DNA of 64,000 nucleotides from an uncultured Aquimarina sp. (GTDB lineage: Bacteria; Bacteroidota; Bacteroidia; Flavobacteriales; Flavobacteriaceae): assembly GCF_947496855.1 (NCBI RefSeq), contig NZ_CANMED010000002.1:248001-312000 (forward strand). The letters run 5' to 3'. Below the pieces are notes generated by a model. The model made no database searches and had not been told where the DNA came from. It was given only the letters and a program-made list of their open reading frames with translations. Within the stretch, counting starts at the first letter, position 1, and each line of letters opens with the position of its first letter. A program made the position numbers and the translations under genes. Positions 22,824-26,574 of this stretch are shown piece after piece.

Positions 22824-23273
22824 ATACTATTCTTTTGGGATAAGAACTAAGGTACATTTAAGATTTATCTATTGATAAAAAATAGAAATCGTAGGATAAA
22901 CGATCTGAAATAATAAAACTCTATAACATTTTTATATTATAAATACCCAACCCCCAAGGTTTATAACGCTGAAGGAAAGCTAAACTATATCCTTATATTT
23001 TATATAGCTGTACTTATATACATGTCTTGTCTTATATATAAGTATATAAATTTTGGGCAATAATTATACTTCAGTTATTGTTGTAAACATATTTTTACAC
23101 CCTGTTTTTAAATAAAAACAAATCCAAATTCTTTATTTTTTCAAAAAAAACACTTCAAAACGTCGTTTTTTCGTTAAAATATGTTAAAATAGTACCTTTT
23201 TATACATAGTACTGTAACAAAATTAAAACCTCTGCGTCTAGTAAGTATATAATAATCTAAAACAATAGAAATT
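22824..23273. other. Long AT-rich leader before the peptide array
   Basis: There is no gene over 450 bp. The stretch is very AT-rich with repeated TATAT words (22985-23050) and a TATAAATTTTGGG near 23044, which could be a diverged -7 box. It presumably contains the promoter of the small-peptide genes. Confidence 0.4.
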
Positions 23274-23360
23274 ATGAGAACATTAGACAATAATCAAATT
23301 ACTAAAAAATTGAACAAAACAAACGGAAATATATGGAACGCTAAAAGACGTTTTAGATAG
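23274..23360 (+). CDS. Small cationic peptide gene, array copy 1
   Basis: A 28-residue open frame: starts MRTLDNNQITKKLNKT and ends NGNIWNAKRRFR, stop TAG. The peptide is strongly basic with one Trp and no Cys. Copies 2-4 follow in the same strand at intervals of about 150 bp. They share the start MRTLD and end with RR(F/Y)R. Most differences between copies preserve the reading frame and length, so this looks like a translated gene family. The family and function are not recognised. Confidence 0.75.
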   Translation: MRTLDNNQITKKLNKTNGNIWNAKRRFR

Positions 23361-23427
23361 TCCGAAAATCAAAATCATTAATCAATTAACCTGTCCCATC
23401 TTTGGAGGGTCAAAAAAATCAAAAACC

Positions 23428-23514
23428 ATGAGAACTTTAGACAGCAATCAAATTACTAAAAAATTAAATAAAACAAACGGAAACATCTGGAACGCTAAAA
23501 GACGTTTTAGATAA
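23428..23514 (+). CDS. Small cationic peptide gene, array copy 2
   Basis: 28 residues, differing from copy 1 only at position 6 (Asn to Ser) while carrying several synonymous changes (TTG/TTA, AAC/AAT, ATA/ATC, TAG/TAA). Synonymous drift with a conserved product is direct evidence of selection for the peptide. It ends WNAKRRFR. The spacer before it includes a CATCTTTGGAGGGT patch. Confidence 0.78.
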   Translation: MRTLDSNQITKKLNKTNGNIWNAKRRFR

Positions 23515-23534
23515 TCCAAAACAATCAAAGTATT

Positions 23535-23582
23535 CATCAATTCAATCATCAATTCAATCATCAATTCAATCATCAATTCAAT
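23535..23582 (+). repeat. Four perfect 12-bp tandem repeats in the peptide-array spacer
   Basis: CATCAATTCAAT is repeated four times without gaps between copies 2 and 3. In the next spacer (23705-23729) the same unit occurs in a shorter, imperfect form. Unequal crossing-over or slippage is the likely origin. It is not a CRISPR: the units are contiguous. Confidence 0.85.
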
Positions 23583-23598
23583 CAAAAAACAAAACATT

Positions 23599-23685
23599 AT
23601 GAGAACATTAGACAGTAATCAAATCAGTAAAAAATTAAACAACACAAATGGAAGTATCTGGAACAACAAAAGACGTTATAGATAA
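23599..23685 (+). CDS. Small cationic peptide gene, array copy 3
   Basis: 28 residues: MRTLDSNQISKKLNNTNG then SIWNNKRRYR. It differs from copy 2 at Thr10 to Ser, Lys15 to Asn, Asn19 to Ser, Ala23 to Asn and Phe27 to Tyr. All are conservative or polar swaps. The leader (ACAAAACATTATG) is identical to that of copy 4. Confidence 0.78.
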   Translation: MRTLDSNQISKKLNNTNGSIWNNKRRYR

Positions 23686-23744
23686 TCCAAAACAATCAAA
23701 GTATTCATCAATCAATCATCAATTCAATCAAAAAACAAAACATT

Positions 23745-23831
23745 ATGAGAACATTAGACAGTAATCAAATCAGTAAAAAATTAAACAACACAAATGGAAA
23801 TATCTGGAACAACAAAAGACGTTATAGATAA
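23745..23831 (+). CDS. Small cationic peptide gene, array copy 4
   Basis: 28 residues, identical to copy 3 except Asn19 in place of Ser (NIWNNKRRYR). The upstream spacer is also nearly identical to that of copy 3, so copies 3 and 4 are the most recent duplication. The downstream spacer holds two short hairpins (CCTC/GAGG and TCCAC/GTGGA, about 23843-23892). Confidence 0.78.
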   Translation: MRTLDSNQISKKLNNTNGNIWNNKRRYR

Positions 23832-23906
23832 TCTAACAATCTGACCTCCTAGAGAGGATCATAAATCAAACCATCCACTGCTGGTGGACCTAAAAAACTA
23901 ATCATC

Positions 23907-24056
23907 ATGAGAACATTACAAAATATAAGGAATAGAACAAGAAATAGTGCCACTCCACAATATAATAAGTTTGTAAACTACATCACGCAATTCTATGATT
24001 ATGAAGGAAACATTATTACCGGAAATAAAAGATACACATACCAAGTTGAACGATAA
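23907..24056 (+). CDS. 49-residue basic protein related to the peptide array
   Basis: The frame starts MRTLQNIRNRTRNSATPQYN and ends GNIITGNKRYTYQVER. It shares MRTL with the four 28-residue peptides and a GNI...NKRY segment near its end, spaced similarly. It is followed at once by a strong terminator, so it closes the transcription unit. The family is not recognised; the middle is aromatic (FVNYITQFYDYEG). Confidence 0.65.
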   Translation: MRTLQNIRNRTRNSATPQYNKFVNYITQFYDYEGNIITGNKRYTYQVER

Positions 24057-24060
24057 AACA

Positions 24061-24100
24061 AAAAGCTGAATTTTAGGGTATTCTCCTAAATTCAGCTTTT
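24061..24100 (+). terminator. Terminator closing the peptide array
   Basis: AAAGCTGAATTTTAGG (from 24062) pairs with CCTAAATTCAGCTTTT (24085-24100) with one bulged T, followed by a T-rich run. It also separates the array from the convergent ccoI gene. Confidence 0.85.
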
Positions 24101-24174
24101 ATATTTATATCCCTTTTGATCACAAAAAAATTCACCTTTTCCTTCTCACTACTATAATTGATAAAAAATAAAAA

Positions 24175-26574
24175 TCATCCTCGAAGTTTTATTTTTCTTC
24201 CATTCCAATTGGTCAAAATCGTTACATATACCACTACAGAAATAGAACTTAATGGCATCAATATGGCGGCAATAATCGGAGATAACTGTCCCGTAACTGC
24301 ATAATATAATCCTATACTGTTGTACAAGAATGACAAGACAAAACTTGATTTAATAATCTTGATTGCCTTTTTAGAAACCTTAAGATACGTAGGAATTTTA
24401 TCAAATTGAGAAGCATCCAAAATTGCATCACATGCTGGAGAAAACACATTCACATTTTCTGAGATAGCAATACCAACATCACTTTGCGCCAAAGCACCTG
24501 CATCATTAAGTCCATCACCAATCATGATTACTTTTTGTGTTGACTCCTGCAATGATTTTATATAATTCATTTTGTCATCCGGTTTTTGATTAAAAAGTAA
24601 TACCGTGTTCTCTGGCAACAATTGTGCTAAATGTTCCTTTTCACCTTCATTATCACCAGATAGAATAGATAATTTATACCCTTTAGTTAAAGTCTCAAAA
24701 ACGTTCCTTACATTCTTTCTATATTGATTATGAAAAATATACCGCCCTTTATACGTGTCATTCGTACTTATATGAACATTCGTATTTTGTGTTTTCGAAA
24801 GTTCTTCCTTTCCAACAAAATTTGACGAACCTATTTTTATAGTACTTTCTGCTAATTTACCTTCAATTCCTTTACCGACATGCTCTTGGTATTCATCAAG
24901 TGTGTATATATCTTGCTCTTCTAAAATATCATACAACGCTCTGCTTAATGGATGATTGGATGCTCTCAACGTATTTTTGAGTAAGGATTCTTCTTCTGGA
25001 GTTAGTTCCATCCCTTCGTATTCTATTTTACTTGTAGTATTGGTCGTTATAGTCCCGGTTTTATCAAAAATCATACTATTCGTAGACGCTAATTGTTCTA
25101 TGACATCTGCATTTTTAAGATAGAATTTATTTTTTCCAAAAATTCGCAACATATTACCCAACGCAAAAGGTCTTGCTAATGCTAATGCACAAGGACAAGC
25201 GATAATTAATACGGCGGTAAAAACATTAATTGCTTTCGTAGCGTCCACAAACAACCAAAAAGTTGTTGCAATTATTGCTATACACAAAATAACAATCGTG
25301 AAATATTTACTGATGGTATCGGTTAGATTGGTAAAAGAGGCAGACTTGTTCTTACTAAATACGTCATTACTCCATAATCGAGTAAGGTAACTCTGTTCTA
25401 CTGTTTTTGTAGCTTCAATTTCTATTGCTCCGTATAATTGCTTACCTCCTGCAAAAAGTTTATCACCTGATATTTTAGTTACCGATTCACTTTCTCCGGT
25501 TACAAAACTATAATCAATTCTGGCCGTACCTTTAATTAATATAGCATCTACAGGTATTAATTCTCCATTGCGTATGAGAAGTCGGTTTCCTTCCTGAATA
25601 TCATACACCCGAATACTCTTTTCGTTATTTTTTTTCTTCTCTTTGTCGAAAATTAATCGAGTTACAGCAATGGGGAAATACGATTTATAATCTCTTTCAA
25701 AAGATAAAAAAGAATAGGTTTTCTGTTGAAAAAATTTACCTAGTAACAGGAAAAACACCAATCCCGTAAGACTATCAAAAAAGCCAGTACCCCAATCAAA
25801 TATGATCTCGGTAGTACTTCTAAGAAAAAGCACTGTAATTCCCAGAGCGACAGGCACATCTATATTTAATATTCTGGAACGCAATCCTTTAAATGCTGAA
25901 ATAAAATAATCTTGTGCAGCATATAACACAACCGGCAATGAAAACACAAACATCAGCCAACGAAATACATATTTATATTGTTCCAACCAGTATTCTGACA
26001 CCTCGAAATACTCAGGAAATGACAAGAACATTACATTGCCAAAAGCAAATCCAGCAACCCCTAATTTATATATTAAACTTCTGTTAATACGTTTTTCTCC
26101 TTCTGAATAATCATTAAGACTTATATAAGGTTCATAACCGATTGAATTCAATAAAACAACTACTTCTTTCAGTGATGTTTTTTCGTTATTAAAAGTAATT
26201 CGAACAGTTTTCTTCGGGAAATTTACTTGAGAATTTATAATTGAAGATTCGAGCTTATGTAAGTTTTCTAATACCCATATACACGAGCTACAATGTATAT
26301 GAGGGATGTATAATGTAATAATCTCAGTAATATCGTCACTAAACTCGATTAATTTTTCGGCAATAGCAGGAGTATCCAGATAATCATATTTCTTTTCAAT
26401 TTCTATAGGAATAGCACCAGGAGCAGATTGTAAGTCATAATAACAGGATAAATCATTACTCCAAAAAATATCATATACAGTTTTACATCCATTACAACAG
26501 AATGTTTTTTGATCAAAAATAATTGCTACCGAATCACAATCATTTCCACAGTGATAGCATGTGGATTCTATCAT
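24175..26574 (-). CDS. ccoI: Copper-translocating P1B-ATPase CcoI/FixI for cbb3 assembly
   Basis: A 799-residue integral membrane pump. The N-terminus has a Zn-ribbon-like pair CYHCGNDC and CCNGCK, then a heavy-metal-associated domain with HCSSCIWVL. Eight helices follow, with the CPC metal site (IIACPCALALARP), the phosphorylation loop DKTGTIT, the HP motif (NHPLSRALY) and the hinge GDGLNDAGALAQSD. It delivers copper needed for the CcoN centre. In other flavobacteria ccoI lies directly before ccoS; here the 12.8-kb accessory region intervenes. Confidence 0.94.
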   Translation of the reverse strand: MIESTCYHCGNDCDSVAIIFDQKTFCCNGCKTVYDIFWSNDLSCYYDLQSAPGAIPIEIEKKYDYLDTPAIAEKLIEFSDDITEIITLYIPHIHCSSCIWVLENLHKLESSIINSQVNFPKKTVRITFNNEKTSLKEVVVLLNSIGYEPYISLNDYSEGEKRINRSLIYKLGVAGFAFGNVMFLSFPEYFEVSEYWLEQYKYVFRWLMFVFSLPVVLYAAQDYFISAFKGLRSRILNIDVPVALGITVLFLRSTTEIIFDWGTGFFDSLTGLVFFLLLGKFFQQKTYSFLSFERDYKSYFPIAVTRLIFDKEKKKNNEKSIRVYDIQEGNRLLIRNGELIPVDAILIKGTARIDYSFVTGESESVTKISGDKLFAGGKQLYGAIEIEATKTVEQSYLTRLWSNDVFSKNKSASFTNLTDTISKYFTIVILCIAIIATTFWLFVDATKAINVFTAVLIIACPCALALARPFALGNMLRIFGKNKFYLKNADVIEQLASTNSMIFDKTGTITTNTTSKIEYEGMELTPEEESLLKNTLRASNHPLSRALYDILEEQDIYTLDEYQEHVGKGIEGKLAESTIKIGSSNFVGKEELSKTQNTNVHISTNDTYKGRYIFHNQYRKNVRNVFETLTKGYKLSILSGDNEGEKEHLAQLLPENTVLLFNQKPDDKMNYIKSLQESTQKVIMIGDGLNDAGALAQSDVGIAISENVNVFSPACDAILDASQFDKIPTYLKVSKKAIKIIKSSFVLSFLYNSIGLYYAVTGQLSPIIAAILMPLSSISVVVYVTILTNWNGRKIKLRG

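What the first reader, a model, noticed from the sequence alone, without database searches (positions are those of the whole stretch)
23274..24100. Tandem array of four 28-residue cationic peptide genes
Four open frames of identical length (23274, 23428, 23599, 23745) encode near-identical basic peptides beginning MRTLD and ending WN(A/N)KRR(F/Y)R. Between copies 1 and 2 nearly all differences are synonymous, while spacers vary, so the peptides, not merely the DNA, appear conserved. No export, maturation or immunity gene is adjacent. A toxin, antimicrobial, signalling peptide or nucleic-acid binding peptide are all possible. I do not recognise a described family.
Basis: partly seen in the sequence, partly recalled or inferred. 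Interest (0 to 1): 0.88.

Follow-up and report, generated by a model that had tools for sequence, protein, structure and literature searches.

The report
Stress-sigma arrays of tiny basic proteins
A marine bacterium carries a row of near-identical 28-amino-acid basic protein genes; rows of this kind sit behind the same unusually conserved switch in many related genera, and that switch carries the signature of a widespread stress sigma factor, so this looks like an undescribed stress-response small-protein system whose exact job is still unknown.

Summary
The four 28-aa ORFs are real, and the finding is larger than reported. The window is Aquimarina (Flavobacteriaceae). A fifth ORF (49 aa) and a strong terminator close the array. 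The peptide family occurs in 43 of 66 genomes of the genus and 110 of 299 of the family. In 80 named arrays all 141 copies found start with ATG, none has an internal stop, and 129 end exactly at residue 28; pooled dN/dS is 0.14 in the window, 0.21 within arrays. Upstream lies a near-invariant element, seen in 37 of 38 array-bearing and 0 of 23 array-free Aquimarina genomes. It ends in TGTAAC-N16-CGTC, an ECF-type promoter. The same motif precedes 29 of 30 orthologues of one conserved ECF sigma gene and envelope genes in this genome, so the array very probably belongs to that sigma's regulon. Elsewhere in the family the same element precedes other small basic ORFs with a similar tail. No known family or paper was found. 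Best reading: a dose-amplified stress microprotein that binds an anionic partner, most likely RNA or ribosome; that last step is inference.

The parts
23173..23192 (+). two GTTAA repeats, 10 bp apart (23173 and 23183), start of the conserved upstream block; possible activator site
   Evidence: for place; spacing 10 bp in 63 and 11 bp in 10 of 80 named arrays
23183..23218 (+). 36-nt near-invariant element GTTAAAATAGTACCTTTTTATACATAGTACTGTAAC
   Evidence: 37 of 61 genomes of the genus, one per genome, 34 of 37 exact, 0 in reversed control
23213..23218 (+). TGTAAC, proposed -35 box of an ECF-type promoter
23235..23240 (+). CGTCTA, proposed -10 box, 16 nt after TGTAAC
   Evidence: 16-nt spacing in 77 of 80 named arrays and 40 of 46 other element sites
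23274..23360 (+). 28-aa ORF, copy 1
23428..23514 (+). 28-aa ORF, copy 2
23599..23685 (+). 28-aa ORF, copy 3
23745..23831 (+). 28-aa ORF, copy 4
23907..24056 (+). closing ORF, 49 aa, different sequence but same MRTL start and a basic-aromatic tail
   Evidence: a further ORF follows the last 28-mer in 62 of 67 testable named arrays
24053..24108 (+). terminator-like hairpin
   Evidence: z -6.55 for 24050-24110

Best explanation
The locus is one transcription unit of a stress response. Shown by sequence comparison: the ORFs encode conserved small basic proteins; one promoter of the form TGTAAC-N16-CGTC precedes the array; the same motif precedes the conserved ECF sigma gene of the family and envelope genes in this genome; a second near-invariant block just upstream (GTTAA repeats plus TACYTTKTNATRCATAGTAC) is nearly private to arrays. 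Inferred: envelope or oxidative stress frees the ECF sigma, which fires the array together with an unknown factor bound to the upstream block; several copies, A-rich starts and a weakly structured mRNA give a burst of cytosolic microprotein; the conserved C-terminal tail (W, then K/R-R, then Y/F) binds an anionic partner, most likely RNA or the ribosome, and adjusts translation or mRNA fate during the stress. I put the sigma-regulon part at about 0.85 and the RNA/ribosome partner at about 0.35.
For: Coding: 141 of 141 copies ATG, 0 internal stops, 129 ending at residue 28; dN/dS 0.14 and 0.21; A at -3 in 96% of 141 copies. Promoter. Sigma: 16 sites against 3 reversed-control sites in this genome, 13 of 16 with an ORF start within 200 nt; 460 against 147 over 34 array-bearing genomes; 29 of 30 sigma orthologues preceded by the motif, control 0 of 30; 78 of 80 array-bearing against 54 of 69 array-free family genomes have the sigma (not corrected for kinship or genome size). 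Tail: W21, N22, K24, R25, R26 invariant in 27 variants; basic and hydrophilic; array RNA weakly structured, z -0.51 for 23241-23835.
Against: No expression, binding or knockout data. Array-free Aquimarina genomes also have more sites than control (130 against 66), so the sigma does not need the array; two array-bearing genomes show little or no excess (G057 11 against 11, G001 12 against 9). G096 and G144 have the element but no sigma match at 1e-20 (G144 is an incomplete assembly). A member of another sigma group could read the same motif. One array copy has an internal TAA (G045). The 28-mers and 37-mers are not shown to be homologous (probability 0.6%). The RNA/ribosome partner rests on composition alone.
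Confidence: 0.55

Rival explanations
1. Membrane stress peptide: the basic-aromatic tail binds the inner face of the cytoplasmic membrane (acidic lipids) when the envelope is damaged.
For: Neighbours in the presumed regulon are envelope proteins: M23 and M61 peptidases, outer-membrane barrel, MacB-like permease, ABC ATPases; Trp with Lys/Arg tail.
Against: No hydrophobic stretch, GRAVY -1.40 to -1.72.
Confidence: 0.2
2. Feedback microprotein: the peptide acts on the sigma, the anti-sigma or RNA polymerase and tunes the response.
For: Shares the promoter motif with the sigma gene; single regulatory locus in most Aquimarina genomes.
Against: The sigma is also kept in 54 of 69 array-free family genomes; several copies and fast peptide change fit poorly with one conserved protein partner.
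Confidence: 0.15
3. Secreted or modified peptide (antimicrobial, signal, or ribosomally made natural product).
For: Small, cationic, tandem copies, conserved Trp in the tail.
Against: No such gene in the window neighbourhood scanned; of eight recurrent neighbour types scanned, none is a peptide-modifying or export enzyme, one is ExbD, but not all flanks were scanned; no leader or signal stretch; no PHROGs or PADLOC match; no element in viral contigs, no 28-mer in plasmids.
Confidence: 0.1
4. The RNA is the product (a regulatory RNA in tandem units) and the ORFs are secondary.
For: Tandem units, own terminator; the upstream DNA is more conserved than the coding DNA.
Against: Synonymous sites change freely while frames stay open; RNA no more structured than shuffles, z -0.51; no Rfam match at gathering score.
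Confidence: 0.07

Closest known systems
CcaF1 (DUF1127) with the CcsR RNAs, Rhodobacter sphaeroides
   Same: CcaF1 is described as a small RNA-binding protein (PMC10253847, start of abstract in a search listing). Recalled, not from a call: it is Arg-rich, stress-sigma controlled and lies in one unit with four tandem sRNAs.
   Different: Our peptides have no Pfam match, the tandem units are ORFs rather than sRNAs, and the host is a different phylum.
ECF sigma / anti-sigma / DUF4252 operons of Porphyromonas gingivalis (PG_0214-0216, PG_0985-0987)
   Same: Same layout as the sigma operon here: sigma, small gene, DUF4252. Listed as up-regulated in a mutant transcriptome, more under peroxide (PMC10101095, passages).
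   Different: No small-protein array in the passages seen; orthology of the sigma factors not tested here.
ECF motif SM6 of Flavobacterium psychrophilum
   Same: CGT box at -10, and a sigma/anti-sigma operon among its targets (PMC9723704, passages).
   Different: Targets named there are T9SS and Band-7 genes; none of our 16 sites was found before a T9SS gene. The -35 part is only in a figure I could not see. Same sigma or not: open.
SigP of Porphyromonas gingivalis
   Same: An ECF sigma of the phylum with a proposed motif (PMC4800418, passages).
   Different: The motif proposed there, C(T)AAA(G/C/T)A(T)A(C)T(A/G)A, does not resemble TGTAAC-N16-CGTC.

Membership tests
Regulon of the family-wide ECF sigma (TGTAAC-N16-CGTC) | motif with 16-nt spacing before the array | tested here: met
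   window 23213-23238; 77 of 80 named arrays, 40 of 46 other element sites
Regulon of the family-wide ECF sigma (TGTAAC-N16-CGTC) | same motif before the sigma's own gene | tested here: met
   29 of 30 best-matching orthologues, own included; control pattern 0 of 30
Regulon of the family-wide ECF sigma (TGTAAC-N16-CGTC) | transcript lost when the sigma is deleted | not testable with these tools
   needs an experiment
DUF1127 / CcaF1-like small proteins | sequence match to the Pfam family | tested here: not met
   no Pfam family at E up to 1 for two window 28-mers and the 49-mer
Type I toxin or membrane-active peptide | hydrophobic segment | tested here: not met
   GRAVY -1.40 to -1.72 for the four 28-mers
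Modified natural-product peptide | maturation or export gene beside the precursor | tested here: inconclusive
   none in the window genes scanned or in eight recurrent neighbour types; not all flanks of the 80 loci were scanned
Leader-peptide attenuator | same-strand target gene directly downstream | tested here: not met
   terminator-like hairpin at 24053-24108, then a gene on the other strand
Known structured RNA | Rfam match at gathering score | tested here: not met
   only two matches, both below gathering score, both at the terminator
Anti-phage defence protein | PADLOC match | tested here: not met
   none at E up to 1 for a 28-mer and the 49-mer

The most novel reading that the evidence does not exclude
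A family-wide, undescribed stress system: a conserved ECF sigma plus a dedicated activator drive interchangeable tandem arrays of fast-changing microproteins in which only the start and a W/R/aromatic tail are kept, acting as protein counterparts of the stress-induced small RNAs of other bacteria.
Probability: 0.3. Interest if true: 0.92.

Novelty: new variant of a known kind. Interest (0 to 1): 0.78.

Why it matters
About half of the 299 family genomes sampled (153) carry the element or one of two peptide families, yet none of the family libraries or papers searched names them. The motif offers a ready-made regulon for a conserved sigma factor of marine Flavobacteriaceae, and a directly testable question: what does a 28-aa basic protein, made from several copies at once under stress, bind?

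Tried and rejected
Rejected: a single-copy chromosomal site of the dif kind (the element is absent from the 23 array-free Aquimarina genomes sampled); the AGTAC-N12-GTACT palindrome seen in Aquimarina (its left half is not kept in other genera, by eye); mobile-element cargo (element not in viral contigs; 28-mer not in plasmids; the phage record collection was not searched); a link to the respiratory genes next door (neighbours differ between clades); known RNA.

Led nowhere: PDB profile searches gave only chance rows; the model of the 49-aa ORF is one low-confidence helix, mean pLDDT 62; paper searches returned no paper, in a library without most subscription journals. dN/dS of first copies binned by synonymous distance is biased by the binning and not used; copies with N were left out.

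Searches drew 66, 61 and 53 genomes of the genus. In one search the 30 loci are the 30 best of 135 listed matches; the pattern allowed 15-17 nt and all 29 hits have 16; three hits lie within 14 nt of, or inside, the open-frame start, which was taken from the previous stop codon. In one search the ORF list was filtered for A-rich upstream bases or a basic tail, so 'small basic ORFs follow' (34 of 40 sites, judged by eye) is partly selected; not so at L270, L274, L286, L288, L289, L290 (L270 and L274 end at contig ends within about 170 nt). In one search some of the 62 closing ORFs are probably chance; 46 of 62 are 43-45 aa; one of the 13 downstream starts (L297) is only 8 nt after CGTC and another (L301) is a TTG.

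A recurring neighbour exists: one gene without Pfam match lies near 43 of the 80 named arrays (36 within 2.5 kb) and an ExbD gene near 26. I read this as shared gene order by descent, but a functional link was not excluded.

Full report
What is there. Four ATG ORFs of 28 codons lie at 23274, 23428, 23599 and 23745 on the + strand. A fifth ORF (23907-24056, 49 aa) begins MRTL like the others and ends in a basic-aromatic tail. A terminator-like hairpin follows at 24053-24108 (z -6.55 for 24050-24110). The next gene, on the other strand (24175-26574), is a cation-transport P-type ATPase. The own genome has no further copy of the 28-mer. Contigs named as Aquimarina have the lengths of unnamed contigs of the same genus (for example 658289, 1036089 and 106524 bases), so the genus is Aquimarina.

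Is it translated? Of the 80 named loci, 77 hold at least one copy in the DNA held, 141 copies in all: 141 start with ATG, none has an internal stop, 129 stop right after residue 28 and 12 run on. A scan for half copies found two, both in-frame short forms that keep the MRTLN start and the tail. Against this, one copy in G045 has a TAA inside. Pooled dN/dS is 0.14 for the six pairs in the window and 0.21 for 88 within-array pairs. The bases before the start are A-rich: A at -3 in 96%, at -11 to -13 in 90-96% of 141 copies; A at -3 is a reported positive determinant of translation in Flavobacterium johnsoniae (PMC6847099, abstract). In an alignment of 27 variants M1, N7, W21, N22, K24, R25 and R26 never change. 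The four window peptides are basic (+5.5 to +6.5) and hydrophilic.

The closing ORF. Of 67 named arrays with at least 400 nt after the last 28-mer, 62 have a further ATG ORF of 18-55 aa within 130 nt; 46 of the 62 are 43-45 aa, many ending like KRYAH or KRYAY.

Distribution. Genus: 43 of 66 genomes at E up to 1. Family: 110 of 299 genomes, 89 of 236 genera, at E up to 0.01. Phylum sample: 4 of 395 at E up to 1e-4, own genome included, all in the same family. The element was not found in viral contigs nor the 28-mer in plasmids.

The promoter. All 30 same-genus loci looked at show one block before the first ORF. The 36-mer, with up to 3 mismatches, is in 37 of 61 genomes of the genus, once in each, 34 of the 37 exact, and never as the reversed control. 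Set by hand, that is 37 of 38 array-bearing genomes (G021 is the exception) and 0 of 23 array-free ones. In the family the core TACTTTGTNATRCATAGTACTGTAACA, up to 3 mismatches, is in 120 of 299 genomes, with no control match. GTTAA repeats lie 10 bp apart in 63 and 11 bp in 10 of 80 named arrays. The block ends in GTAAC, followed 16 nt later by CGTC in 77 of 80 named arrays and 40 of 46 other element sites; the bases between are less conserved. CGTC lies mostly 31-36 nt before the ATG. This is the shape of an ECF promoter. Calling it one is inference from established knowledge of ECF promoters.

Which sigma? TGTAAC-N16-CGTC occurs 16 times in this genome against 3 for the reversed pattern. Thirteen of the 16, the array included, have an ORF start within 200 nt downstream. 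Genes there: M61 and M23 peptidases, DUF4870, a beta-lactamase-family hydrolase, two CarboxypepD-regulatory proteins, an outer-membrane barrel protein, an Rce1-like protease, a MacB-like permease, two ABC ATPases and an ECF sigma. L294, L299 and L304 have no close downstream gene, and L299 and L307 overlap an opposite-strand ORF. Over 53 genomes of the genus, the 34 array-bearing ones have 460 sites against 147 control sites and the 19 array-free ones 130 against 66; single genomes can show no excess (G057, 11 against 11). The sigma gene of site L307 matches in 132 of 149 family genomes at 1e-20, and 29 of its 30 best-matching orthologues, own included, carry GTAAC-N16-CGTC near the start of the open frame; the control pattern does so in 0 of 30. 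So that sigma is very probably autoregulated through this motif, and the array carries the same motif. Behind the sigma lie a small ORF without Pfam match, read as an anti-sigma from its place, and a DUF4252 gene. Operons with the same layout in Porphyromonas gingivalis are listed as up-regulated in a mutant transcriptome, more under peroxide (PMC10101095, passages). An ECF-type motif with CGT at -10 is described in Flavobacterium psychrophilum (PMC9723704, passages); whether it is the same sigma is open. The SigP motif proposed for P. gingivalis is different (PMC4800418, passages).

Not only this peptide. In genomes without the 28-aa family the same element is followed by other small basic ORFs, often in tandem: 37-mers ending like SKRAQWAQYRNFNR, 24-mers, 29-mers ending LGYFKRRIA, 43-mers ending WNSKRRFSY (34 of 40 further sites, by eye). 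A profile of the 37-mers matches 37 of 299 family genomes (one of its 22 rows is a typing mix). Element, 28-mer or 37-mer: 153 of 299. A profile comparison puts the two tails in register but is not significant (probability 0.6%), so common descent of the peptides is suggested by promoter and layout, not proven.

How it most likely works. By comparison: conserved coding, one promoter, a sigma-type motif, repeated dose, a terminator. Inferred: release of the sigma under envelope or oxidative stress, help from a factor at the upstream block, a burst of microprotein, and binding of RNA or ribosome by the tail. The weak RNA structure (z -0.51 for 23241-23835) and the free synonymous change favour the peptide over the RNA as product. 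Membrane binding and feedback on the sigma are the main rivals. The upstream core TACTTTGT also fits the TAnnTTGY box of motif SM5 (PMC9723704, passages), so a second promoter there is possible.

Known or new? No Pfam, NCBIfam, PHROGs, PADLOC or PDB match above chance rows, and no Rfam match at gathering score. Paper searches found nothing. [quoted passage not shown] I therefore file it as a new variant of a known kind: stress-sigma-controlled small proteins, in an array form not met before in the searches made here.

Noticed in passing
own genome G000:C8:16561-17067 (-), loci L307 and L313: A conserved ECF sigma gene with its own promoter motif, followed by a small gene and DUF4252; found in 132 of 149 family genomes. 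Its regulon looks definable from GTAAC-N16-CGTC.
   Followed up: partly
L243, L254, L271, L272, L276, L278 after the element: An ORF of another kind (38-43 aa, with a motif like YFRIGFGWNTDRLYD) opens many of these arrays or lies within them.
   Followed up: no
L093, L120, L130, L139, L145, L164, L169: In some genera the closing ORF is a short 22-26 aa peptide with an acidic stretch (like NTSNSLDDDLETIK), unlike the basic 44-aa form.
   Followed up: no
window 23832-23906: Two small hairpins with CCTCC-like and CCACC-like bases in the spacer before the closing ORF; weak (z -1.67).
   Followed up: partly
G070: One genome of another genus has 10 matches of the 28-mer spread over several contigs.
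   Followed up: no
80 named loci: A gene without Pfam match lies near 43 of 80 arrays and an ExbD gene near 26; probably shared gene order, not tested.
   Followed up: partly
upstream core, window 23193-23209: In most other genera this reads TACTTTGT, which fits the TAnnTTGY box described for Flavobacterium psychrophilum; a second promoter is possible.
   Followed up: no
L006, L007, L013, and contig ends of G061 and G052: Runs of N and contig breaks fall inside arrays, so copy numbers from draft genomes are uncertain.
   Followed up: no
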